From positions 310,001 through 374,000 of the forward strand of contig CAILAC010000002.1 of NCBI GenBank assembly GCA_903832055.1: a stretch of 64,000 bases of DNA. The letters run 5' to 3'. The stretch is from an uncultured Acidobacteriota bacterium. Lineage in GTDB: Bacteria > Acidobacteriota > Terriglobia > Terriglobales > Acidobacteriaceae. Positions 8,999 through 19,844 of this stretch are shown here, one piece after another. Both the position numbers and the translations under genes were made by a program. The notes below the pieces were generated by a model. The model worked only from the letters and a program-made list of their open reading frames with translations. It made no database searches and was not told where the DNA came from. Positions within the stretch are counted from its first letter, which is position 1; every line of letters begins with the position of its first letter.

Positions 8999-9226
8999 TA
9001 GCTACCATCTGTCTTTCTAGAGCCAAAGTTTAACATGCGTCCCGCAGGTACCCCACCCTCGCAACGCACTTGGTTTTGTTCGGCGTCCCCGTGGACAGGT
9101 CTTGATCTGTGCGGTGATTGTGGCTAACGTAGGACTCAGCCCGCCCCGCACCATCCCCTCAGCCCCCTTGTTGTAACCTGAATCTTCAACCTGCTTCGCC
9201 CATCTCACCCCGCGAGGACTCTCTCC

Positions 9227-11365
9227 ATGCCCCTCCGCCTCCGATCACTTCTCCTCCTCGCAGCCTCCGCCGCAGCCGTATCGCCGCTGGTCGCCCAGGC
9301 CCCCAAACAGGTCTTCGGTTATCGCGACTTCGCCGCCCAGGCCAAAATCGACGCCAGCTTCCTCGCCGTCCCCGACGCCGCCCTCGCCGGACAGCACCTC
9401 AAAACCCTCACCGCCAAGCCCCACATGGCCGCCACCAAAGAGGACTATGAGACCGCCGAATACGTCGCTCAGAAATTCAAAGCCGCCGGCCTAGACACCG
9501 AAATCGTCCCCTACCGCGTCCTCCTCAACCAGCCCCGCAAAGTCCACTTTGAAGCCGTCACCGACTCCGGCGCAGCCCTCATCTCCGGCCCCACCCCCGA
9601 GCATGTAAGCGCCGACGCATTCCAGGACGATCCCCGCGTCGTCATGCCCTTCAACGGCTCCTCCGGCTCCGGCGACGTCACCGGCGCTGTCGTCTACGCC
9701 AACTACGGCCGCCTCGAAGACTTCGACCAGCTCGCCGCCCTCCACATCGACCTCCACGGCAAAATCGTCCTCGTCCGCTACGGAGCCAACTTCCGCGGCG
9801 TCAAGGTCTACATCGCCCAGCGGCGCGGAGCCATCGGCGTCCTCATCTACTCCGACCCCATCGACGACGGCTACTTCAAGGGCGACGCGTACCCCAACGG
9901 CCCCTGGCGTCCGGAAACAGGCGTGCAGCGCGGCTCAGTCCAGTACCTCTTCAAATATCCCGGCGACCCCCAGACCCCCGGCGTCGCCTCCACCCCTGAT
10001 CTGCCCGACTCCGCCCGCCTCGACCCCCTCAAAACCGGCAATCAGCCCAGCATCATCTCCATCCCCATCAGCTACCACGACGCCGCGCCCATTCTCAAAG
10101 CGCTCAAAGGCACCGCCGTACCCAAAGGCTGGCAGGGAGCACTCCCCTTCAGCTACCACACCGGCGGCACAGAAGCCCTCACCGGCGCAAAGCTCCACCT
10201 CATCTCTGACCAGGACTACCAGGTCCGCACCATCTGGGATGTCATCGGAAAAATCAAAGGTACTGACTACCCCGATGACTGGGTCGTCGTCGGCAACCAC
10301 CGCGACGCCTGGGTCTACGGCGCAGTAGACCCCAATAGCGGCACCGCCTCCATGCTTGAATCCGTTCACGGCTTCGGCGCACTCCTCAGCCAGGGCTGGA
10401 AACCCAAACGCACCATCGTCGTCGCCAGTTGGGATGCAGAAGAAGAGGGCCTCATCGGCTCCACCGAATGGGTCGAGCAGCACGCAGAAACCCTCAAGCG
10501 CGCCGTCGCCTACTTCAATGTCGATGTCGCCGTCGCCGGCTCGGAATTCGGCGCTGAAGCCGTCCCCTCCCTCAAGCAGTTCATCCGCGAAGTCACCCAG
10601 CAGGTCCCCAGCCCCAAAGGCGGCACCGTCTACAGCCAATGGAAAGCTGCCGCATCCGCCACCCAGCAGGGCGACGCCAACACCGGCCACATCACCCGCT
10701 CCAACGCACCCAGCGAAGACGTCACCGTCGGCGATCTCGGCTCCGGCTCTGACTTCACGCCCTTCCTCCAGCACGTCGGCGTACCCTCCACCGACATCGG
10801 CTCCCACGGCGACTACGGCGTCTACCACTCCGTCTTTGACAACTACGCCTGGTTCACCATGAACGCCGACCCCACCTTCGTCTACCTCCAGCAAATGGCC
10901 CGCATCCTCGGCCTCGAAGCCATCCACATGGCCGACGCCGACATCCTGCCCTACGACTACCCCACCTACGCCAAAGAAATCTCCAGCTACATCGAAGCCG
11001 CCAAACGCAAACCCGCCGCCACCACCCTCGACTTCGCACCCGCCGAGGCCGCCGCCGCCCGCTTTGCCAAGGCCGCCACCTCCATCCGCCAGCTCCAACT
11101 CGCTCCAGGCACCAATCCCGCAGCGCTCAACAGCACACTCCGTGCCGCTGAAACCGCCTTCATCGCCCCCGCAGGCCTCCCAAACCGCCCCTGGTACAAG
11201 CACACCATCTACGCCCCTGGCGAATTCACCGGCTACGCCGCCGTCGTCATCCCCGGCGTCAACGAAGCCCTCGACGCTAAAAATCCAACCACCGCCGCCC
11301 AGCAACTGATCGTCCTCACCCAATCACTCAACCAAGCGGCCCAAACCCTTGAAGCCGCTCAGTAA
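9227..11365 (+). CDS. M28-family metallopeptidase, glutamate carboxypeptidase II-like
   Basis: The 712-residue protein starts with a clear signal peptide (LRSLLLLAASAAAVSPLVAQA). A protease-associated domain lies near residues 130-240 (GKIVLVRYGANFRGVKVYIAQ). The M28 zinc peptidase domain follows: GNHRDAWVYGAVDPNSG carries the first His and bridging Asp, SWDAEEEGLIGSTEW carries the catalytic and ligand glutamates, and HGDYGVYHSVFDNY holds the last His. The C-terminal 140 residues resemble the transferrin-receptor-like dimerisation domain. The family (NAALADase/PSMA) trims C-terminal acidic residues from peptides outside the cell. GAGGA sits 12-16 bases before the ATG. A strong terminator follows, so it is monocistronic. 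Confidence 0.92.
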   Translation: MPLRLRSLLLLAASAAAVSPLVAQAPKQVFGYRDFAAQAKIDASFLAVPDAALAGQHLKTLTAKPHMAATKEDYETAEYVAQKFKAAGLDTEIVPYRVLLNQPRKVHFEAVTDSGAALISGPTPEHVSADAFQDDPRVVMPFNGSSGSGDVTGAVVYANYGRLEDFDQLAALHIDLHGKIVLVRYGANFRGVKVYIAQRRGAIGVLIYSDPIDDGYFKGDAYPNGPWRPETGVQRGSVQYLFKYPGDPQTPGVASTPDLPDSARLDPLKTGNQPSIISIPISYHDAAPILKALKGTAVPKGWQGALPFSYHTGGTEALTGAKLHLISDQDYQVRTIWDVIGKIKGTDYPDDWVVVGNHRDAWVYGAVDPNSGTASMLESVHGFGALLSQGWKPKRTIVVASWDAEEEGLIGSTEWVEQHAETLKRAVAYFNVDVAVAGSEFGAEAVPSLKQFIREVTQQVPSPKGGTVYSQWKAAASATQQGDANTGHITRSNAPSEDVTVGDLGSGSDFTPFLQHVGVPSTDIGSHGDYGVYHSVFDNYAWFTMNADPTFVYLQQMARILGLEAIHMADADILPYDYPTYAKEISSYIEAAKRKPAATTLDFAPAEAAAARFAKAATSIRQLQLAPGTNPAALNSTLRAAETAFIAPAGLPNRPWYKHTIYAPGEFTGYAAVVIPGVNEALDAKNPTTAAQQLIVLTQSLNQAAQTLEAAQ

Positions 11366-11387
11366 CCAATACCCCGCAACAATCCAC

Positions 11388-11433
11388 AAATCCTGAATCT
11401 CGCCAACTTCTCCGGCCAGATTCAGGATTTTTT
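11388..11433 (+). terminator. Rho-independent terminator of the M28 gene
   Basis: AAATCCTGAATCT at 11388-11400 pairs exactly with AGATTCAGGATTT at 11418-11430 (13-bp stem, 17-base loop), running into a T tract. It lies 23 bases after the stop codon. Confidence 0.85.
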
Positions 11434-11628
11434 GCTTTGGAGCCACTCCGCAATCCACCCACCGCCAGACAATCCCCCAAATATTTCCCGAAATGACACT
11501 TTTCTCTGGACATCTCCCCCAAAATAGTGCAAAGTAACATTACTAAAGACTTCTATTGGCGCTTGGTTTGTGTTACCAGGGGAACCACCTCCGGGTGGGT
11601 GTTCAGTGGAGTCCGAAAGAGACTACTC

Positions 11629-11721
11629 ATGCATGACTTTTTGATTGCTCTGGTTTTCGTTGCGATGGTCGCCTCCCCCGCGATCATTGCCTCGATGCCC
11701 AAAACTGCCCACGAAGAGTAG
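11629..11721 (+). CDS. MHD-type membrane microprotein, 30 residues (copy 1)
   Basis: ATG at 11629 opens a 30-residue frame beginning MHDFLIALVFVAMV and continuing with ASPAIIAS before a short polar tail ending HEE. It is one membrane helix or a signal-like peptide. A homologous 32-residue gene lies on the opposite strand at 16643-16741; the two agree or are conservatively substituted at almost every one of the first 22 positions. An identical 12-base sequence, GTGTTACCAGGG, lies upstream of both (11570 here; 16850 there, opposite orientation relative to the gene). The longer frame reaching back to 11527 is not needed. A strong terminator follows at 11870. Function unknown. Confidence 0.72.
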   Translation: MHDFLIALVFVAMVASPAIIASMPKTAHEE

Positions 11722-11869
11722 TTCTCGTGTAACCCTTTTGTCTGTGTGTCAGGCTAAAGCCCGGCACGATCATCCACCCGCTTCACCCGCTGGCCAGAGC
11801 ATAGAATTCCCTCCCCCGGAATCCTCTACTCCCCAACCCCAGCAAAACAATTGAGATGAGCCCTCCCCA

Positions 11870-11916
11870 CTGGCCGTTTTTCTGAGTGAACTCTCAGAAG
11901 ACGGCCAGCTTTTTTT
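11870..11916 (+). terminator. Rho-independent terminator, microprotein transcript
   Basis: CTGGCCGT ... TCTGAG pairs with CTCAGA ... ACGGCCAG, followed by CTTTTTTT. The stem is interrupted only by a small internal loop. Its presence implies a plus-strand transcript from the microprotein region. Confidence 0.8.
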
Positions 11917-11962
11917 GTTGTGACGCACGTCACGCTTCCCTCCCCCAAACGTCCAACTTGCA

Positions 11963-11991
11963 TTGACCGCAGTCACCTCGCCTCGTAAACT
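11963..11991 (+). promoter_or_regulatory. Predicted sigma-70 promoter for ccmE
   Basis: TTGACC (11963-11968), a 17-base spacer, then TAAACT (11986-11991), 59 bases before the ccmE ATG and downstream of the preceding terminator. Confidence 0.5.
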
Positions 11992-12050
11992 GGTTAGGAA
12001 CTCACTGTTTGACATTCGTCAAAAGCCGCGTTCAGGAATTTGGGGTTGCC

Positions 12051-12596
12051 ATGAAGTTATCCGCGCAGCAGACCCGCATCATCATCGCCTCTGTCGTCGT
12101 CCTCAGCACCATCGGCTACCTCGCATTCACCGGAGCAGCAGCCAACAAGAGCTACTACGTTACCGTTCCTGAAATGCAGGCTATGGGCGACAAGGCCTTT
12201 CAGGCGTCCCTGCGCGTCGAGGGCTTCGTCAAGCCAGAGACCATCCAGGCCAGCGGCACCCACGTCACCTTCGTCCTCGACGAGTTTGAAAGCCACAATC
12301 CCAAGGCAACCCCCACCATGCGCGCCCTCCGCGTCGTCTATCAGGGCACGGAACCACCCCCTGACACATTCAAGAGCGACGCACAGGCCCTCGCCATTGG
12401 CACATACGGCCGCGACGGCGTCTTCCACGCCACGCAGCTCCAGGCCAAATGCGCCAGCAAATACGCGCCAGCTGACCCAGGCAAATCTCCAGCAGGCGCG
12501 CAGCCCGGAATGGCCCCGACCGCTCCCGCTCAGGACAAACGCGCCGCCGAGACGCCGGCAGGTTCAAATTCGCAATCTGCAGCAAAGAGCCTCTAA
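12051..12596 (+). CDS. ccmE: Cytochrome c maturation haem chaperone CcmE, CxxxY type
   Basis: From ATG 12051 the 181-residue product has an N-terminal anchor helix (RIIIASVVVLSTIGYLAFTG), the CcmE OB-fold (YYVTVPEMQ ... SLRVEGFVKPETIQ ... HVTFVLDEF ... VVYQGTEPPPDTFK) and the strand LAIGTYGRDGVFHATQLQAKC. CcmE carries haem covalently and passes it to apocytochromes at the outer face of the inner membrane. Textbook CcmE binds haem through His in HxxxY. Here the site reads CASKY near residues 133-137, i.e. the CxxxY variant known from archaea and Desulfovibrio-type system I*. The tail is a Pro/Ala-rich low-complexity region. A frame opening at 12009 exists, but M15 begins the homologous part. 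ccmA follows. Confidence 0.9.
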   Translation: MKLSAQQTRIIIASVVVLSTIGYLAFTGAAANKSYYVTVPEMQAMGDKAFQASLRVEGFVKPETIQASGTHVTFVLDEFESHNPKATPTMRALRVVYQGTEPPPDTFKSDAQALAIGTYGRDGVFHATQLQAKCASKYAPADPGKSPAGAQPGMAPTAPAQDKRAAETPAGSNSQSAAKSL

Positions 12597-12603
12597 AGTC
12601 CCG

Positions 12604-12659
12604 TGCCGGGTCTCATTCCCGGCATTCCTCAGTGCAAATGAACGCGGGGCTTCTGCCCC
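12604..12659. repeat. Two short palindromes between ccmE and ccmA
   Basis: TGCCGGG / CCCGGCA (12604-12624, 7-base loop) and GGGGC-TTCT-GCCCC (12646-12659). The second is of the GGGGCTT-AGCCCC type that recurs near 16584 and 22305. Confidence 0.6.
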
Positions 12660-12674
12660 TGAAGGAACCGACCG

Positions 12675-13382
12675 TTGACTCTGGCCCCGGATTCCAGCGA
12701 TACAGCCTCCAACGCTCTGCTTCTGTCGCCCGCCCCGCTCGCCCGCGTCCAGTCCGTCTCTCGTCTCTTCGGCTCGTTCGCCGCCCTGCGCCAGGTTTCA
12801 GTCGATTTCGCGCCGGGCCAGTGCTCCATCCTTCTGGGTGAAAACGGCGCAGGCAAATCCACCCTGCTGCGCATCCTCGCCGGCCTCCTGCACCCCTCCG
12901 ACGGCAAGGTCACGGTCTTTGAAGACCTCACCCCCCACGCCGCCCGCCACCGCATCGCCTACATGAGCCACGCCCCCATGCTCTACGACGAGCTCACCGG
13001 CCTTGAAAACCTCACCTACTTCAGCAGCCTTTACCAGCGCGGCTCATGCCTCTCCCCCGCCCAGGCCCTCGAACAGGTCGGCCTCGACCCCGCCCTCACC
13101 CGCACCGTAGGCCAGTACTCCCAGGGTATGCGCCAGCGCGCCTCGCTCGCCCGCGTCCTGCTCTCCCAACCCCAGTTGCTCCTCCTCGACGAACCCTTCT
13201 CCAACATGGATGTCGAAAGCGTGCAGCAGATGGTCGCGCTCCTCGCCCGATTCCGCTCCGCAGACCGCGCCATCGTCATCACCACCCACCAGCGCGAACT
13301 AGCCGCCCCCATCGCCGACCAGGTCGTCACCCTCAAAGCAGGCCGCCTCCACTCCGTAACCCCCGGCCAACCCACCCTCTAG
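12675..13382 (+). CDS. ccmA: Haem exporter ATP-binding subunit CcmA
   Basis: A 235-residue ABC ATPase: Walker A GENGAGKST near residue 57, signature QYSQGMRQRASLARV, Walker B LLLLDEPFSNMD, and the H-loop TTHQRE. The compact size, the small VFEDLTPHAARHRIAYMSH region and the ccmE gene just upstream identify CcmA, which powers release of holo-CcmE from the CcmABCD complex. The start is TTG at 12675 with GAAGGAA upstream; a variable N-terminal 25 residues precede the conserved part. The membrane partners ccmB and ccmC are 4.5 kb away on the other strand, so the operon is split. Confidence 0.85.
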   Translation: MTLAPDSSDTASNALLLSPAPLARVQSVSRLFGSFAALRQVSVDFAPGQCSILLGENGAGKSTLLRILAGLLHPSDGKVTVFEDLTPHAARHRIAYMSHAPMLYDELTGLENLTYFSSLYQRGSCLSPAQALEQVGLDPALTRTVGQYSQGMRQRASLARVLLSQPQLLLLDEPFSNMDVESVQQMVALLARFRSADRAIVITTHQRELAAPIADQVVTLKAGRLHSVTPGQPTL

Positions 13383-13398
13383 GCCCCACAACACCGCC

Positions 13399-13797
13399 CT
13401 AGTGCAGCGAAGTCACAAGCGCCACAGCCTTCGTAAGACGCGCCTCCCGTGGCCGCGATGTCTTCTCATTCGATGGCGTATAGATATGCTCAATCTGCTC
13501 GATCCGGTAAGCCCCCGGCGCAAATCGCAGGTCCTTCCCAATCCCGTCGCCCGGCAAAAGCACAATATCCCCCGGCTTTGGCAGCGTGTGCAACGTCTCC
13601 AGCGGCACCAGGTTCACCGCCGAGCCATCCTCCACTACAAATTCAAGGCAGTTCTGGCTGTGAATTCCACGCCTCCACTCCTTGGCCTCCTGACGTGCCT
13701 TGAACGACTGGTAGTATGTCGCGGCGACCGTAGGAAAAACAACAAGTGAACTGGCAATTCCCAGATAGGCGTTCCATTGGGCTGCAGTCAGGAACAT
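13399..13797 (-). CDS. Hypothetical membrane-anchored protein, 132 residues
   Basis: From the ATG at 13797 the product has one N-terminal helix (YLGIASSLVVFPTVAATYYQSF), a basic patch (KARQEAKEWRRG), and a small soluble domain with strands such as CLEFVVEDGSAVNLVPLETL and PGDIVLLPGDG that could form a beta-barrel. AGAGG lies 7 bases before this ATG, which is why I prefer it over the frame opening at 13875. It converges on ccmA with a 16-base gap and faces away from hemW. No family recognised. Confidence 0.6.
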   Translation of the reverse strand: MFLTAAQWNAYLGIASSLVVFPTVAATYYQSFKARQEAKEWRRGIHSQNCLEFVVEDGSAVNLVPLETLHTLPKPGDIVLLPGDGIGKDLRFAPGAYRIEQIEHIYTPSNEKTSRPREARLTKAVALVTSLH

Positions 13798-13947
13798 GAA
13801 TCCTCTTTCTCCATGACACTCAAAAATTACGATGGTGGACTTGCCCAGTATCGTATCCCAGAGATAAAGAACCAATCATGCCCCTAAAAAATCTGCCCGT
13901 CTCCCACCAAAAACACCTTCAGACGCTTCAATGAGAAAATAAAACGA

Positions 13948-15168
13948 ATGCTTACGCCGGATCACAACGCGCTCGGCCTCTACTTCAGCATCCCCTTCTG
14001 CCGCGCCAAGTGTACCTACTGCAATTTCGCTTCAGGCGTTTACCCCGCCAGCGAACACTCCCGTTACGTCGCCCGCCTCATCCACGACCTCGCCGCCGCG
14101 CCCGCCTGGGCCCAGTCCATGCAGGTCCACCTGCCCCGACAGGTCGATACAATCTACTTCGGCGGCGGAACCCCCGTCCTGCTTGCACCCGAGCTCTTCA
14201 CACAAATCTTCGCCGCCATCCGCGATCAGTTCCAGCTCACACCCGACGCTGAAATCACCATCGAGTGCGCCCCCGGCCAGCTCCCCGACGACACCCTCGC
14301 CGCCATGGTCGCCGCCGGCGTCAACCGCGTTTCCCTCGGCGTCCAGTCCTTCGTCGACCGCGAAGCCACCCTCAGCGGCCGCTTCCACACCCGCGACATC
14401 GTCCTCCAGGATCTTCGCCGCCTCCGCGCCGCCGGCATCCCCAACCTCAACATCGACCTCCTCGCCGGCCTTGCCGACCAGACCCTCGCCTCATGGCGCG
14501 AATCCCTCGCCGTCCTCCGCGACACCGGTGTACCCCATGCCAGTGTCTACATGCTCGAAATCGACGAAGACTCCCGCCTCGGCCGCGAACTCATCGAAGG
14601 CGGCATCCGCTACTCCGCCGGCCTCGTCCCCAACGACGACACCATCGCGCAAATGTACGAAGAAGCCGTAACCTCCCTCGCCGCCTCAGGCCTCGCCCAG
14701 TACGAAATCTCCAACTTTGCCCAACCCGGCATGGAGTCCCGCCACAACCTGCGCTACTGGCAGCGACGCCCCTATCTGGGCCTCGGCCTCGACGCAAGTT
14801 CCATGTTTTACGCTGAAGACAAAATGGTCCTCCGTGCCACCACGACAGACGACCTGCCCGAATTCCTCGACCCCGCAGAAACCGCTCACGAAACATCCTG
14901 GCTCGGTCCCACCCAGCAGCTTGAAGAAGCCTGGTTCCTCGGCCTCCGCCGCAACGCCGGCGTCTCCATCCGCGCCCTCATCACCGAGTTCGGCCCCGAT
15001 GCGGTCGCACCCTCCATCGCCGTCGCCCACCGCCTCGCCGCCGACGGTCTCCTCTCCACTGCAAAAAATTTCGTCCGCCTTACCGACCGCGGCCGCCTCA
15101 TCTCCAACGATGTTTTCGCCGAGTTCCTCGGCCTCGCTCCGGCCCATCACACCGCACAATCAAAGTAA
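13948..15168 (+). CDS. hemW: Radical SAM haem chaperone HemW
   Basis: The 406-residue protein opens with [19 protein letters not shown], the radical-SAM cysteine motif CxxxCxxC, followed by the HemN/HemW landmarks [36 protein letters not shown] and [10 protein letters not shown], and a C-terminal HemW wing domain. As in HemW and unlike coproporphyrinogen dehydrogenase HemN, the fourth cysteine after CxxC is absent (CNF). HemW binds haem and inserts it into membrane respiratory enzymes. Its position beside cytochrome c maturation genes fits a local haem-handling region. It has no clear GGAGG site. The threonine aldolase gene starts 19 bases after it. Confidence 0.88.
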
Positions 15169-15187
15169 TCCCAGAGGAATCCCGACC

Positions 15188-16246
15188 GTGCCCGACCTAC
15201 AGACCCAGCCCGTCATCGATCTCCGCAGCGACACACTCACCCACCCCACCCCCGAGATGCGCGCCGCCATGGCCGCCGCCGAGGTTGGCGACGACGTCTA
15301 CGGCGAAGACCCCACAATCAACCGCCTTGAAGCACGCGCCGCTGAACTCTTCGCCCGCGAGGCAGCCCTTTTCGTGCCCACCGGAACGATGGGCAACCAG
15401 ATCGCCATCCGACTCCACACCCGCCCCGGCCAGGAGATCATCACCGAGTCTCGCTCCCACATCCTCGATTGGGAAATGGCCACAGCAGCCACATTTTCCG
15501 GCTGCCTCATCCGTGCGGTAGCGGCCCCGCGAGGCATCCTCACCTGGGACCACATCGAGCCTGTCATCTACGCCAAAGGCAACTTCCGCGCCGCTACAGG
15601 CCTCATCGAACTCGAAAACACCGCCAACCTCGCCGGAGGCACCGTCACACCCCTGCCCATCCTCGAGGAAATCTGGGCCGAAGCCCGCAAGCGCAACCTC
15701 CCCGTCCACCTCGACGGAGCACGCATCTTCAACGCTGCCTCCACCCTGCCCGGCGATGTCTTCGAAAACGCTCGCACCCTCACCAGCGGCTTTGATACCG
15801 TCATGTTCTGCTTGTCAAAAGGGCTCTGCGCCCCGGTCGGGTCCATGCTGGTGGGCTCGAAGGCGGCCATCGACGAGGCCCGCATTTACCGCAAAGCTCT
15901 CGGTGGCGGCATGCGTCAAGCCGGGATTCTCGCGGCAGCCGGATTGATCGCACTCGAAAAAATGCCCCTCCGCCTCCATGAAGACCACGCCAACGCCCGA
16001 TTCCTCGCCGAGACCCTGACCGCCAGCTCCGAAGTGGAGATTGACCTCGCCGCAGTCCAGACCAACATCGTCGTTTTCTCGCTCAAAACACAAAAATCTG
16101 CTGACTTCGTAGCCCGCCTCAAATTACACGGTGTACTCATGAGTACCGTCGGTCCCCGCAGCGTACGCCTGGTTACACACCACGACGCCGACCAGGCCGC
16201 CTGTCAAAAAGCCGCACAAATCCTCAAGACCGCCCTGGAAATCTGA
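15188..16246 (+). CDS. ltaE: Low-specificity L-threonine aldolase (PLP-dependent)
   Basis: From GTG 15188 (AGAGGAA upstream) the product is 352 residues. It begins [20 protein letters not shown], the classical threonine aldolase N-terminus, with [16 protein letters not shown], the cofactor-contact EITESRSHI-like segment, [12 protein letters not shown] (PLP-ring Asp) and the Schiff-base lysine in [14 protein letters not shown]. It splits L-threonine and L-allo-threonine to glycine and acetaldehyde. The same frame stays open upstream to 14717 inside hemW, but that extension is a hemW shadow. The 19-base gap suggests co-transcription with hemW. Confidence 0.9.
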
Positions 16247-16263
16247 GGCCTGGTCTTGGAAAA

Positions 16264-16307
16264 GCGCGTGTGCATGTCTGAGCTAATGCTCGGACATGCA
16301 CACGCGC
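16264..16307 (+). terminator. Long near-perfect hairpin after ltaE
   Basis: GCGCGTGTGCATGTC at 16264-16278 pairs exactly with its complement at 16293-16307. After one T/G pair, GAGC/GCTC extends the stem around a TAAT loop: 20 pairs in 44 bases, 18 bases after the stop. No T-run follows, so termination may be Rho-dependent or the hairpin may protect the 3' end. Confidence 0.6.
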
Positions 16308-16642
16308 CACAAATGAAATAATTTCAATGGCCTTGACAGCCTGCGGAAAGACGCCTTCGATTGGCGCTTTGTAAAAGGGCAAGATTCCCACCGCTTGGCT
16401 AAGGACTCTTTTGAGGAGCGCAACAGTCTCGCTTTGTAACAAGGGCACGGCTTCGGCGGGGACGATCAAGACAAGACCATCAACAGGGATTCAGCCGCTG
16501 CCATGCTTCAACCGTGACACTGGCTTCACATTGCGCATTTCCGCAATCCGTCCAGCCACGCAAATCATGACAGTACAATCAGCGGGGCTTTTAGCCCCTT
16601 GCACACAGAGAACCAGGGCAATAATGCTTGTTAACCGCTCGC
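16308..16642. repeat. Cluster of dispersed palindromic repeats
   Basis: No gene between the ltaE hairpin and microprotein copy 2. I see a degenerate unit at about 16363 (GGCGCTTTGTAAAAGGGCA), a second at 16430-16457 (CGCTTTGTAACAAGGGCACGG...), and the palindrome GGGGCT-TTT-AGCCCC at 16584-16598. The CGCTTTGTA-CAAGGGCACGG unit reappears inverted at 19874-19900. Confidence 0.65.
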
Positions 16643-16741
16643 TTACTCAAACTTCGAGTCGGGGCTGCCGCTCTTCGCGGCGACGACGGCGGGTGCAACA
16701 ACCATTCCGATGAAGGCAAGAACAATCAGAACATCATGCAT
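16643..16741 (-). CDS. MHD-type membrane microprotein, 32 residues (copy 2)
   Basis: On the complement, ATG at 16741 gives MHDVLIVLAFIGMVV followed by APAVVAAKSG and an acidic/polar end, 32 residues in all. AGGGGAG lies 8 bases before the ATG, a good ribosome site. It matches copy 1 at 11629 in the MHD start, LI.L.F..MV...PA..A pattern and length. Predicted to be a single membrane helix. It lies downstream of the ccmBCD genes on the same strand but 195 bases away. Function unknown; too short for most gene finders. Confidence 0.75.
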   Translation of the reverse strand: MHDVLIVLAFIGMVVAPAVVAAKSGSPDSKFE

Positions 16742-16935
16742 GGGAGTAATCTCCCCTGTGGGAATTCGTCCGAACTCGTCCACACCCTGATCATCGGTCA
16801 GATTTGAAAATTCTTAAATCCCACGAAGACAGTGCTTGTAACCAAGACAGTGTTACCAGGGTACCCACATTTGTGTTACATGAGGCCGTAGCAAAATACA
16901 AGAAAAATCGCTTTAGCATGAACCATGCCTGTCAA
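16742..16935 (-). promoter_or_regulatory. Leader of microprotein copy 2 with repeated GTGTTAC motif
   Basis: GTGTTAC occurs at 16850-16856 and again at 16873-16879 on the plus strand. The first is part of GTGTTACCAGGG, which also lies 59 bases upstream of microprotein copy 1. CAGTG-type repeats (ACAGTGCTTG / ACAGTGTTAC) lie beside it. A shared regulator site is inferred, not shown. Confidence 0.4.
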
Positions 16936-17043
16936 CTAGGCCTTGCCACGCTGCCCTAACCACTTTGCCGCCATCCAGCCCGCGTACCCAAGATGAATCG
17001 CCCAGGTGCAGAAAAATGCCGCCACCAGATATGAATGTCCCAC
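16936..17043 (-). CDS. ccmD: CcmD-like small haem-exporter subunit
   Basis: A GTG start at 17043 preceded by GAGGAGGA gives 35 residues: GHSYLVAAFFCTWAIHLGYA, then GWMAAKWLGQRGKA. A single membrane helix with an aromatic/Trp entry, a His near its outer end and a basic cytoplasmic tail is the pattern of CcmD and its relatives, which stabilise the CcmABC-CcmE complex. It follows the ccmC stop by 64 bases on the same strand, the usual ccmD place. CcmD sequences are poorly conserved, so identity rests mainly on position, size and topology. Confidence 0.65.
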   Translation of the reverse strand: MGHSYLVAAFFCTWAIHLGYAGWMAAKWLGQRGKA

Positions 17044-17107
17044 AGTTCCTCCTCACATTCTCTTTTATTTCAATCACTTACACCAAACTCCGACGAAGCG
17101 CTGTAGC

Positions 17108-17815
17108 TCAGTCTCCTGCCAGAGCCTCCAGAGCCGCCACGGTGTCAATCGCCTGCTGTCGCCGCTCCACATAAACCCGTATGCCCAGCACAAGTAACCC
17201 CCACATCGCCCACGCCAGCACGTTCCAGCCAAAAGCCGCCAGCATATGCGGATCCTTGATGCCCGAATCAGGCCCCCCGCCAAAGACAGGAGCGGGATGC
17301 TGCGTCCGCCAGAGCCGGTTTGCCAGGTAATTGATCGGCATGTCAATCGCACCGAAGACTGAAAGCACAGCAGCCAGCGTCTGCATCTGCGCCCCGGAAG
17401 CAAACCGCCGCGTCAACAGGTAACTGACGTAGATCAGCCAAAGTACCAAAGTTGTAGTCAGCCGCGCATCCCATGTCCACCAGATGCCCCACACCGGGCG
17501 GCCCCAGAGCGGCCCGGTAATCAGCACCACCGAGCAATACACCACTCCAACTTCAGCACCGGCCAAAGCCCATGCGTCAGCAGCCTGCGCCCGGCCCGGA
17601 TGACCCCGCCGCCATACCAGAAAGAACAGCGACGCCACGAAATTGATGACAAAAAACAAATACGAGAGCATCGCATTGGGCACGTGATAGTAGAAGATGC
17701 GCTGGACGTCGCCCATCGTGGCTTCAGTCGGCGCAACGTAGATGGCCTGGTAGAAGCCCCAGCCCATCAGGGCAAGGACGACGAGCGCAGCTACAGCGAA
17801 CAGGAGTTTTTTCAT
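17108..17815 (-). CDS. ccmC: Haem exporter / haem lyase-type protein CcmC
   Basis: A 235-residue, six-helix membrane protein with the tryptophan-rich haem-handling motif WGRPVWGIWWTWDARLTT near residue 115, preceded by the periplasmic His in RIFYYHVPNAM and followed by a second conserved His in the C-terminal half (IKDPHMLAA region). CcmC presents haem to CcmE and forms the holo-CcmE bond. It sits downstream of ccmB (108-base gap) and upstream of the ccmD-like gene. Its normal length excludes the much larger CcmF. No ccmF, ccmG or ccmH is visible in the window. Confidence 0.9.
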   Translation of the reverse strand: MKKLLFAVAALVVLALMGWGFYQAIYVAPTEATMGDVQRIFYYHVPNAMLSYLFFVINFVASLFFLVWRRGHPGRAQAADAWALAGAEVGVVYCSVVLITGPLWGRPVWGIWWTWDARLTTTLVLWLIYVSYLLTRRFASGAQMQTLAAVLSVFGAIDMPINYLANRLWRTQHPAPVFGGGPDSGIKDPHMLAAFGWNVLAWAMWGLLVLGIRVYVERRQQAIDTVAALEALAGD

Positions 17816-17923
17816 CGCAGAAGTTTCCCTTTTGTATTGACGACTTTTAGTTTAGACCGATGTGAGACAAAGCAATGGTGACCGTCAGCACTGGATTTGG
17901 ACGCAGTCCATGTTTACGCATCA

Positions 17924-18625
17924 CTATTCTGCTTCAAGAATCGTGTCGAAAAGAATGAGACTAACCGTCGTGAAGATGATGTCGTACCCGCCGAGAAGCT
18001 TGATCCAAAGCAGGTTTGGGTCACTGTTGTCGCCGGTGAGAATGGTCTTGACCGAGAGCACCATCGCCAGCAGCGCCGGCAGGAAGATGGGAAAAAGGAT
18101 GAGCGGCAGCAGCAGTTCCCGGTTGCGGCTGCGGATCGACAGCGCCGCAAAAAAAGTCCCGTTCGCCACCAGCGCCCAGGTGCCAAAAGGAATGACAAGC
18201 AATAGCAGCCACGCATTCCCAAGAGGATGCAAGTTATAGAAGATAAAAAAGATAGGTCCCAAGACGAACTGCACAATCGAGACATACAAAAAGTTCGCCA
18301 GCACCTTAGCCAGAAACAGTGCCGCCCCATCCGAGGGCGTCATCCGCAAAGCATCCAAAACCTGATGACGAATCTCCCGCGCCCAGGCCTGGTTCAGAGA
18401 ACTGACGCTGGCAAAAAGCGTCGCCACACACAGCACCCCGCCAGCAATTTCCCGCGAAGTATCCGCTGTCGGATCAAAAGCCATGCTGAATAGCACAACC
18501 ACCAGCAGCGCAAAAAACAGCATCGAATTGATGGCCTCGCGCGAACGCCACTCAATCTGCAGGTCTTTGCGCAGGTGAGACCAGACCAGCCCTGTCCAAC
18601 TGATTGAATTTTGAGCAGATTCCAT
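17924..18625 (-). CDS. ccmB: Haem exporter membrane subunit CcmB
   Basis: The 233-residue protein has six hydrophobic segments. It begins SHLRKDLQIEWRSREAINSMLFFALLV (shown in the sequence as one run), the CcmB signature in which a cytoplasmic RKDL..EWR element precedes helix 1. The loop LNQAWAREIRHQVLDALRMTP is also family-typical. CcmB is the permease partner of the CcmA ATPase. It begins 6 bases after the ybaK stop, so ybaK-ccmB-ccmC-ccmD probably form one minus-strand operon, apart from ccmE-ccmA. Confidence 0.88.
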   Translation of the reverse strand: MESAQNSISWTGLVWSHLRKDLQIEWRSREAINSMLFFALLVVVLFSMAFDPTADTSREIAGGVLCVATLFASVSSLNQAWAREIRHQVLDALRMTPSDGAALFLAKVLANFLYVSIVQFVLGPIFFIFYNLHPLGNAWLLLLVIPFGTWALVANGTFFAALSIRSRNRELLLPLILFPIFLPALLAMVLSVKTILTGDNSDPNLLWIKLLGGYDIIFTTVSLILFDTILEAE

Positions 18626-18631
18626 TGGTAT

Positions 18632-19120
18632 TCATTCTGTCATGCGTACGCCGTCTTTGGTGAGATCGGCGACGGTTGCTGCGGCGGCGCGCAGATAATC
18701 CGCGGGAGCGAGGATGAGTTGGGTGCCGCGGACGCCGGCGGAGACGCTGATTTCGTCAAAGAGTTCGATCGTCTCGTCGACAAAGACGGGGTAGGCTTTT
18801 TTTGCGCCAAAGACGGTAACGCCGCCGCGAATGTAGCCGGTGAGGGGTTGCACTTCCTTGAGAGAAACCATTTCGGCTTTGCGGACCTGCGCGGCGCGGG
18901 CGAGTTTTTTGAAATCCACCTCAGCGTCGCCGGGGATTACGGCGAAAAAGTGAGAGCCGGCTCCGTCGGTAGTAAGGAGGGTTTTGAAGACTTGTTCGAT
19001 GGGCATGTTGATTTTGCGGGCGACGGAGATGGCGGTTAGGTCGTCGGGATCGACTTCGTACTCGCGAAGGGAGTAGGGGATTTTGAGGGATTCGAGGAAG
19101 CGTGCGCCGTTGGTTTTCAT
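18632..19120 (-). CDS. ybaK: YbaK/EbsC-family aminoacyl-tRNA deacylase
   Basis: The 162-residue frame has the YbaK/ProX fold: TNGARFLESLKIPYSLREYE at the start, QVFKTLLTTDGAGSHFFAVIPG with the catalytic-region Lys, KAEMVSLKEVQPLTGYIRGGVTVFG and VSAGVRGTQLILAPADYLRAA. Members hydrolyse Cys-tRNA(Pro) or related mischarged tRNAs. It is the first gene of the minus-strand run that continues into ccmB. Its coding strand is C-rich, whereas the ccm genes just downstream are balanced, so the strand-composition change falls at its 3' end. Confidence 0.9.
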   Translation of the reverse strand: MKTNGARFLESLKIPYSLREYEVDPDDLTAISVARKINMPIEQVFKTLLTTDGAGSHFFAVIPGDAEVDFKKLARAAQVRKAEMVSLKEVQPLTGYIRGGVTVFGAKKAYPVFVDETIELFDEISVSAGVRGTQLILAPADYLRAAAATVADLTKDGVRMTE

Positions 19121-19184
19121 GGGGATATCGTGGATTGTCCCAGAAGTTTTTCGCTTCTGACAAATTGAAGTTTATCGTGGTCGA

Positions 19185-19844
19185 ATGAAGTTCTCTTTCA
19201 AGAACAGTACTCTAGCCGCTTTGGGCTTAGTAGCACTGATGTCACTTCCATTACTGGCTGCAGACAACCGACCGGCGGCCCGCGCACGATATGCGGAGCT
19301 TGCCAAAAAGGTCAGGGCTGGCGATTTGAGTATCGACTGGAAGGCGCTGCGCGTCGCTGCCGCCATCGGCGAAGTTGGGGACTCGTCGGAGGATATGCTG
19401 GCTGGCCAGAAAGCCACTGTCGCGTTGAATGACGGCAAGTTTGCGGAGGCGCTGAAGATATGTAGGGAAATTGAGGAGCACAACATTGCCGATGAGGACG
19501 CACACTATGTGGCGTGGCGATCGCTGGTTGGGCTTGGCCGGGAGGAGGAATCCGAGAAGGAGCGGGTGCTGCTTGCGGCGCTGTTGCAATCCATTACGGA
19601 TTCCGGCGATGGAAAGAGTGCAAAGACGGCGTGGTTTGCGACGACCATTCGTGAGACGTATCTCTATATGGGCGCAGTACTGAACGTGCAGTTTGTGGAC
19701 CATCGCACATGGAAGCAGGACGGCCACTATTACGATGTGGTGGAGGTGAAGGACCAGAATGGGAAGCAAATGATTCTCTGGTTCAACGCGGATACGGAGA
19801 TGCAGAGGCAGATGGCTGCGGGCGAACGCGCGGTGCAGAAGTAA
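19185..19844 (+). CDS. Secreted DUF4919-like protein
   Basis: The 219-residue product has a signal peptide (TLAALGLVALMSLPLLAAD) and a helical body: ARYAELAKKVRAGDLSIDWKALR near the N-terminus, NIADEDAHYVAWRSLVGLG in the middle, and LQSITDSGDGKSAKTAWFATT before a final strand-rich part (DVVEVKDQNGKQMILWF). The Y..L...V..GD..ID..LR opening and the SGDGKS..TA segment recall DUF4919, a family of unknown role. It is transcribed divergently from ybaK. The C-terminal part resembles tetratricopeptide-associated DUFs, so the family name is tentative. Confidence 0.65.
   Translation: MKFSFKNSTLAALGLVALMSLPLLAADNRPAARARYAELAKKVRAGDLSIDWKALRVAAAIGEVGDSSEDMLAGQKATVALNDGKFAEALKICREIEEHNIADEDAHYVAWRSLVGLGREEESEKERVLLAALLQSITDSGDGKSAKTAWFATTIRETYLYMGAVLNVQFVDHRTWKQDGHYYDVVEVKDQNGKQMILWFNADTEMQRQMAAGERAVQK

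What the first reader, a model, noticed from the sequence alone, without database searches (positions are those of the whole stretch)
11629..16741. A pair of paralogous 30-32 residue membrane microproteins (MHD family)
Copy 1 (11629-11721, plus) and copy 2 (16643-16741, minus) share the MHD start, a matching hydrophobic core (LI.L.F..MV...PA..A) and a divergent polar tail. They flank a haem/cytochrome maturation region. Copy 2 has a strong ribosome site, copy 1 a strong downstream terminator. Two independent copies with conservative changes are hard to explain unless the peptide is made. I know of no named family.
Basis: partly seen in the sequence, partly recalled or inferred. Interest (0 to 1): 0.72.

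Follow-up and report, generated by a model that had tools for sequence, protein, structure and literature searches.

The report
Paired membrane microproteins beside cytochrome genes
Two tiny hydrophobic peptides that could pass for accidents of sequence belong to a real, selectively conserved family of roughly 32-residue membrane proteins found in one family of acidobacteria, but what they do is still unknown.

Summary
In detail: both ORFs are at the stated places and are genes by selection. The genome has five copies; all 15 genomes searched in its genus have some, as do 42 of 299 sampled in the class, 40 of them in one family, with up to 8 matches each. Orthologues show purifying selection (copy 1 and L042: pN 0.04, pS 0.33). 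H2, D3, F10 and P17 are nearly invariant; residues 3-24 are predicted helix. Copy 2's ~100 bp upstream region is a conserved promoter-like array. A profile of it finds 10 places in 299 genomes, all before family genes, though it detects only 7 of the 42 carriers. Copy 1 belongs to a second subfamily with another operator-like palindrome and, in its genus, a C-rich 3' region resembling an sRNA. Copies flank the ccm operon; 27 of 46 testable genomes keep one within 10 kb of ccmB. No convincing match in Pfam, NCBIfam, PHROGs or PADLOC, nor of one query in plasmids or phages. Best reading: separately regulated single-pass membrane microproteins acting through a partner membrane protein. Coding is well supported; partner and function are inferred. 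A toxin is disfavoured, not excluded.

The parts
11629..11721 (+). Copy 1, 30-aa membrane microprotein, type 1 (ccmE-side subfamily)
   Evidence: Translation; own-genome HMM hit E 7.6e-19 (it was in the query); orthologue L042 pS 0.33, pN 0.04
11533..11546 (+). Palindrome AGTAACATTACTAA upstream of copy 1, candidate operator; a further GTTACC at 11572-11577
   Evidence: GTAAC-N0-3-TTAC upstream of 6 of 117 copies: the 5 type-1 copies of the genus and L116. One perfect and one 1-mismatch match in the genome; the backward control also gave one
11797..11831 (+). Stem-loop 3' of copy 1 with C-rich loop CTCCCCC (11811-11817)
   Evidence: Fold of 11722-11960, z -3.99; CCCTCCCC also downstream of the type-1 copies of L042, L039, L037, L038
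11860..11868 (+). Second C-rich stretch, GCCCTCCCC, just before the terminator hairpin
   Evidence: a C-rich stretch before a hairpin and T-rich tail also in L042, L039, L037, read by eye
11870..11916 (+). Intrinsic-terminator-like hairpin and T7
   Evidence: Fold; not listed by the strict scan
11936..11946 (+). Third TTCCCTCCCCC, between the terminator and ccmE
16643..16741 (-). Copy 2, 32-aa membrane microprotein, type 2 (ccmC/aroF-side subfamily)
   Evidence: Translation; own-genome HMM hit E 6.0e-21 (it was in the query); L043 pS 0.63, pN 0.12; predicted helix 3-24
16780..16878 (-). Promoter/operator-like region of copy 2: TAACAC 16878-16873, GTGGGTA 16868-16862, TAACAC 16855-16850, GTGGGAT 16824-16818, -10-like GATGAT 16795-16790
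   Evidence: Alignment A4 of 42 upstream regions; profile R1 hit E 1.2e-17 (this region was in the training set); box positions counted
16757..16784 (-). Hairpin at the predicted 5' end of the copy 2 mRNA, before the ribosome site
   Evidence: Fold z -2.36; inner stem covaries over 49 leaders
16751..16757 (-). Ribosome-site motif AGGGGAG of copy 2
   Evidence: partly paired with CTCCC before the ATG in the predicted fold

Best explanation
The two ORFs are genes for about 32-residue single-pass membrane microproteins, members of a multi-copy family found almost wholly in one acidobacterial family. Shown by sequence: they are under selection as proteins; type 2 copies such as copy 2 have a dedicated, conserved upstream array and often a 5' hairpin; type 1 copies such as copy 1 have another palindrome and, in this genus, a C-rich 3' region ending in a terminator-like hairpin. 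Inferred: each is its own transcription unit; the array binds an activator; the peptide is made on demand, inserts as one helix, and uses the nearly invariant HD, F10 and P17 to dock sideways on a larger membrane protein and tune its activity or stability, as AcrZ or CydX do. The recurring sites around the ccm operon make a respiratory or cytochrome-linked partner the first candidate, but only weakly.
For: Five copies in the genome. All 15 genus genomes have hits, best E 1.2e-6 or lower; 42 of 299 class genomes, 9 of 106 genera. Orthologue pairs with pN well below pS: 0.04 v 0.33, 0.04 v 0.64, 0.03 v 0.71. Membrane-like hydropathy in 115 of 117. Helix 3-24, mean pLDDT 93 and 95 for residues 1-10 and 11-20. 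Among 68 copies in loci found without a DNA pattern: MHD in 52, MVHD in 10, F10 in 56, P17 in 57, and F and P one place later in all 10 MVHD forms. Places found by the promoter profile at E of about 0.001 or lower: 4 in the own genome, all at family genes; 33 in 15 genus genomes, 32 at family genes and one running into a contig end; 10 in 299 class genomes, all at family genes.
Against: No partner is identified. Away from the ccm locus the neighbours tested are unlike one another: MutS2, lysozyme, FolC-like Mur ligase, ThiC, SHMT, LigD. ccmB occurs in 287 of 299 class genomes, family members in 42 of 299. Eight of the 15 genus genomes have their copies on other contigs than ccmB. Several copies per genome is unusual for a fixed subunit. 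The promoter profile was trained on family genes, so only the lack of other hits is informative; only the best first-look candidates were scored (150 of 289, 13 per genome shown). The closest orthologue of copy 2 (L041) is uninformative, pN 0.08 v pS 0.11. No expression data.
Confidence: 0.48

Rival explanations
1. Type I toxin: the hydrophobic peptide harms the membrane and is held down by an antisense RNA from the long upstream region.
For: Short hydrophobic peptide; tandem copies about 390-920 bp apart; an upstream array found only at these genes. The ribosome site is predicted paired in many leaders: at least two bases paired in 34 of 59 leaders folded alone and in 52 of 59 folded with 30 bases of ORF, as a translation-restrained toxin mRNA might be.
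Against: Tail net negative in 72 and positive in 8 of 102; no K or R in residues 1-20 of 102. Position beside the same genes in many genomes. One query peptide gave no match in plasmids and three at E 8 or more in phages; nothing in PADLOC for 27 members. No antisense transcript could be sought.
Confidence: 0.15
2. Accessory factor of cytochrome c maturation or of a c-type cytochrome complex, acting in the membrane with CcmB/CcmC or an oxidase.
For: Types 1 and 3 upstream of ccmE and type 2 after ccmC recur in the genus, in genus g9 and in further Acidobacteriaceae assemblies. A copy within 10 kb of ccmB in 27 of 46 testable genomes over three genera. In L044 two copies lie next to a cytochrome c gene.
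Against: Own upstream array and terminator-like hairpin suggest separate transcription. None of the 8 testable genomes outside those three genera, and 8 of 15 in the genus, has a linked copy. Most ccmB-bearing genomes of the class sample lack the family.
Confidence: 0.15
3. Signal-peptide-like precursor of a short secreted peptide cut after residue 22, for example a pheromone.
For: Small residues at 18, 21 and 22 and a polar tail of about ten residues that is alike within the genus.
Against: No K or R in residues 1-20 of 102, and nearly invariant HD, F10 and P17 in the part that would be discarded. Tails differ between genera.
Confidence: 0.08
4. The loci matter as RNAs (C-rich RNA, leader) and the peptide is incidental.
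For: 5' hairpin; C-rich stem-loop after type 1.
Against: Selection at the protein level. C-rich motifs follow type 1 of the genus (5 of 5) and only 6 of the other 112 copies, 107 of which had the full 320 bases to look at.
Confidence: 0.03

Closest known systems
Single-helix small membrane proteins such as AcrZ and CydX (functions recalled; starts of abstracts of PMC7267776 and PMC6005532 seen in the listing)
   Same: Under 50 residues, one membrane helix, conserved residues within it
   Different: No sequence match, no linked partner gene, several copies per genome, an upstream array shared by copies
CIN1 locus, ccaF1-CcsR of Alphaproteobacteria (passages of PMC10253847 and PMC8625941)
   Same: Type 1 only: a small ORF followed by C-rich stem-loops and a terminator-like hairpin (that CcsR loops are C-rich is recalled)
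   Different: CcaF1 is a 71-aa DUF1127 RNA-binding protein; no Rfam match near here at E up to 1 that is plausible; no RNA shown
Type I toxins such as Ldr and Ibs (recalled)
   Same: Small hydrophobic peptides, tandem intergenic copies
   Different: Acidic tails, syntenic inheritance, no antisense RNA known
CcmD (recalled)
   Same: Small membrane protein beside ccmC
   Different: A separate 35-aa ORF (16936-17043, -) takes the ccmD place; 27 family members match no Pfam family below E 0.089

Membership tests
Small single-pass membrane proteins (functional class) | Under 50 residues with one hydrophobic helix | tested here: met
   Hydropathy in 115 of 117, two of them window copies; predicted helix 3-24 of copy 2. 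Lengths 30-36 in 105 of 117
Small single-pass membrane proteins (functional class) | Selected as protein | tested here: met
   pN below pS in orthologue pairs; translation itself not detected
AcrZ/CydX-like modulators | Binds a larger membrane complex | not testable with these tools
   No partner identified
Type I toxin-antitoxin | Antisense RNA against the toxin mRNA | not testable with these tools
   No transcript data
Type I toxin-antitoxin | Positively charged hydrophobic peptide (usual, not strict; recalled) | tested here: not met
   Tail net negative in 72, positive in 8 of 102
CIN1 / CcsR locus | DUF1127 protein upstream of the RNAs | tested here: not met
   No Pfam match below E 0.089 in 27 members
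CIN1 / CcsR locus | C-rich loops and a terminator 3' of the small ORF | tested here: inconclusive
   Motif and predicted fold in type 1 of the genus; no RNA shown
CcmD | Matches the CcmD profile | tested here: not met
   the ORF in the ccmD place gave no Pfam match either, so the profile may be insensitive
Sec signal peptide | Positively charged N-terminal region | tested here: not met
   No K or R in residues 1-20 of 102

The most novel reading that the evidence does not exclude
A regulatory circuit special to one acidobacterial family. A dedicated transcription factor reads a phased array found at no other gene and switches on a battery of transmembrane microproteins. The type 1 transcript is dual: a microprotein that tunes a respiratory membrane complex and a C-rich 3' RNA that blocks ribosome sites of further mRNAs.
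Probability: 0.15. Interest if true: 0.8.

Novelty: new variant of a known kind. Interest (0 to 1): 0.55.

Why it matters
A selected, multi-copy family of about 32 residues is of a size that gene callers easily lose; whether deposited annotations include it was not checked. Its upstream array makes two questions directly testable: which regulator reads it, and when. Type 1 offers a test of whether small-ORF plus C-rich-RNA loci exist outside Alphaproteobacteria. The hosts are a little-studied group of bacteria.

Tried and rejected
Non-coding accident: rejected by homologues and by selection in orthologues; the two window copies alone do not settle it (13/9/13).

Known RNA family: Rfam at E up to 1 on 9000-19500 gave three sub-threshold matches (a snoRNA and two microRNAs), taken as chance.

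Known protein family: best were a PHROG of unknown function at E 0.0093 in 4 of 27 members and TrbE at E 0.024, far below its cut-off; taken as noise.

Presence of ccmB as a test of linkage: useless, since it is nearly universal (56 of 61, 287 of 299).

A sigma-28-like reading of the type 2 promoter was considered by eye and dropped because the -10 differs between groups.

Promoter pattern in the own genome with one mismatch: 13 places, 1 of them at a family gene; replaced by the profile R1.

Open ribosome site as an argument against a toxin: dropped on checking. The motif is wholly unpaired in 21 of 59 leaders folded alone and in 5 of 59 folded with 30 bases of ORF. For this reason the toxin reading was raised from 0.12 to 0.15 and the best reading lowered from 0.50 to 0.48.

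Consensus fold of 49 leaders: no pairs. The stem counted was read from single folds, which favours it; 27 cells changed on both sides against 10.4 in shuffles (0 of 500), but pairs with such a change were 4 against 3.7 (322 of 500) and a third of the cells do not pair.

C-rich motif as a general signature: of 6 TTCCCTCCCCC in the genome 2 are at this locus; the other 4, by eye, lack the hairpin.

Pattern scan of genome contigs: of 65 stretches 59 were confirmed by the family HMM and 6 were not (L090, L093, L096, L115, L140, L141), among them the two titled outside Acidobacteria.

Rows dropped: one search kept 117 copies after removing identical upstream-plus-ORF letters. Of 114 with 200 upstream bases, 58 hold the promoter anchor pattern. 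The column count used 61 regions, 5 of them anchored on an alternative pattern, after dropping those over 90% alike. One search was typed by hand: 54 genomes with a copy, 46 with a printed ccmB position; not every copy was entered, strong ones included, but rereading the lists no omitted copy of the 19 unlinked genomes lies within 10 kb of ccmB. Tandem or draft contigs can hide linkage. Type labels in the tree were set by me from position.

Full report
The observation. A degenerate pattern of their common start occurs exactly twice in the window, against 0.01 expected. Between the copies, differences by codon position are 13/9/13 with pS 0.62 and pN 0.32, so the pair alone is weak evidence of coding.

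A real family. A profile of the two peptides finds five strong copies in the genome: these two and three in tandem on contig C10. All 15 genus genomes have copies, best E 1.2e-6 or lower; of the other 46 genomes in that search only G022 and G034 have strong matches and two more reach E 0.01. With a 27-member alignment, 42 of 299 genomes sampled from the class match at E 0.001 or lower; 40 are in the same family, and the other two are 80% and 73% complete. Contig length and copy spacing identify G001 as Acidicapsa dinghuensis 4GSKX, so the window groups with that genus. A pattern scan of public genomes gave 65 stretches, 59 confirmed by the family HMM. In all 117 distinct copies were collected.

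Selected as protein. Orthologue pairs: copy 1 and L042, pN 0.04 v pS 0.33; copy 2 and L043, 0.12 v 0.63; others 0.01 v 0.42, 0.04 v 0.64, 0.03 v 0.71. Copy 2 and its closest relative L041 are not informative, 0.08 v 0.11. Pooled over 2144 non-independent pairs the ratio is 0.38. A ribosome-site motif precedes 103 of 117 copies, against 89 of 912 control 15-mers.

The protein. Membrane-like hydropathy in 115 of 117; one predicted helix, residues 3-24. In 68 copies held in loci found without a DNA pattern, 52 start MHD and 10 MVHD, 56 have F10 and 57 P17, and all 10 MVHD forms have F and P one place later. No K or R in residues 1-20 of 102; tail net negative in 72 and positive in 8 of 102. Pfam, NCBIfam, PHROGs, PADLOC and solved structures give nothing convincing. 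One query peptide gave no plasmid match and three phage matches at E 8 or more.

The type 2 promoter. Copy 2 and about half of the copies (58 of 114 with 200 upstream bases) share an anchor pattern; around it lie TAnCAC-N4-GTGGnA, a further TAnCAC, GTGSnATT and [GC]ATn[AC]T, the last starting 29 bases after GTGS. In 61 regions T at position 34 is fixed without having been selected; G/C at 29 and A/C at 33 are fixed too, but in 5 regions these belong to the alternative anchor. I read this as a sigma-70-type -10 with a poor -35 and activator sites; that is inference. A sequence profile of 42 regions finds 4 strong places in the own genome, all before family genes, the next at E 0.23; 150 of 289 first-look candidates were scored. 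In 15 genus genomes 33 places reach about E 0.001: 32 precede family genes and one runs into a contig end; seven weaker ones (E 0.013-0.43) do not. In 299 class genomes, with stricter filters, 10 places in 7 genomes, all at family genes, in three genera; most carriers are missed, so the array is either more divergent or absent there. The predicted mRNA often begins with a small hairpin: mean z -1.46 in 60 leaders, 43 below -1. Its inner stem covaries more than shuffles on some measures and not on others, and a third of cells do not pair. The ribosome site is often predicted paired, in copy 2 with CTCCC before the ATG.

Type 1. Copy 1 was not found by this profile and has AGTAACATTACTAA instead. 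Relatives sit between an M28 peptidase and ccmE in the genus, in g9 (strain AB60 by spacing) and in other Acidobacteriaceae assemblies. In a tree of 98 short sequences the 12 labelled type 1 fall in a clade of 22 with all 7 type 3 and three type 2 sequences, support 0.62: consistent with an old duplication, not proof. All 5 type-1 copies of the genus have CCCTCCCC within 320 bases downstream (3, 3, 2, 2, 1), against 6 of the other 112 copies, one each. In the window the first lies in a loop, the region folds with z -3.99, and a terminator-like hairpin follows. A weak sigma-70-like match lies between it and ccmE (one found, 0.3 expected). The layout resembles ccaF1-CcsR of Rhodobacter (passages), but the protein is of another kind and no RNA has been shown.

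Neighbourhood. The common order is M28 - type 1 - (type 3) - ccmE - ccmA - ybaK - ccmB - ccmC - (small ORF in the ccmD place) - type 2 - DAHP synthase - YncE-like, not every locus showing every gene (families checked). In the window the ccmC-ccmB half is on the other strand. A copy lies within 10 kb of ccmB in 27 of 46 genomes where both places were printed: 7 of 15 in the genus, 4 of 4 in g9, 16 of 19 in g40, 0 of 8 in the rest. In the 8 unlinked genus genomes the main copy is next to a phage-type lysozyme gene (8 of 8) and a mutS2 gene (7 of 8, families of one locus checked). Elsewhere the neighbours tested are varied. The ccm link looks like an old address and is only weak evidence of function.

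Mechanism and limits. The most likely working is a helix that docks on a membrane partner; identity-level conservation in the helix and separate promoter-like arrays favour it. Partner, regulator and inducing condition are unknown. A toxin is less likely because of charge and syntenic inheritance, but expression tests are needed. I found no description of this family in the searches (listings only) or in passages of PMC10903887, which does not mention Acidobacter-; large smORF catalogues such as that of PMC11364881 (listing only) were not searched and may hold members unnamed.

Noticed in passing
window 11797-11946: Three C-rich CCCTCCCC motifs within about 140 bases between copy 1 and ccmE, one in a predicted hairpin loop; a candidate C-rich RNA, the motif being kept at this locus in five genomes of the genus.
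   Followed up: partly
window 16936-17043 (-): A 35-aa ORF starting with GTG directly after ccmC, in the place of ccmD; no Pfam match.
   Followed up: partly
L036:7659-8748: Three tandem family copies before DAHP synthase in the same genome; two encode identical proteins and differ at 3 synonymous sites in the ORF.
   Followed up: yes
L046, L116, L127, L134, L139, L145, L150: A third subfamily (MVD, MVN, MRD, MKD or MID start) sits just upstream of ccmE in these seven loci.
   Followed up: partly
L048-L055: In eight smaller genomes of the genus the main copy lies next to a lysozyme gene, in seven also beside mutS2, instead of at the ccm locus.
   Followed up: partly
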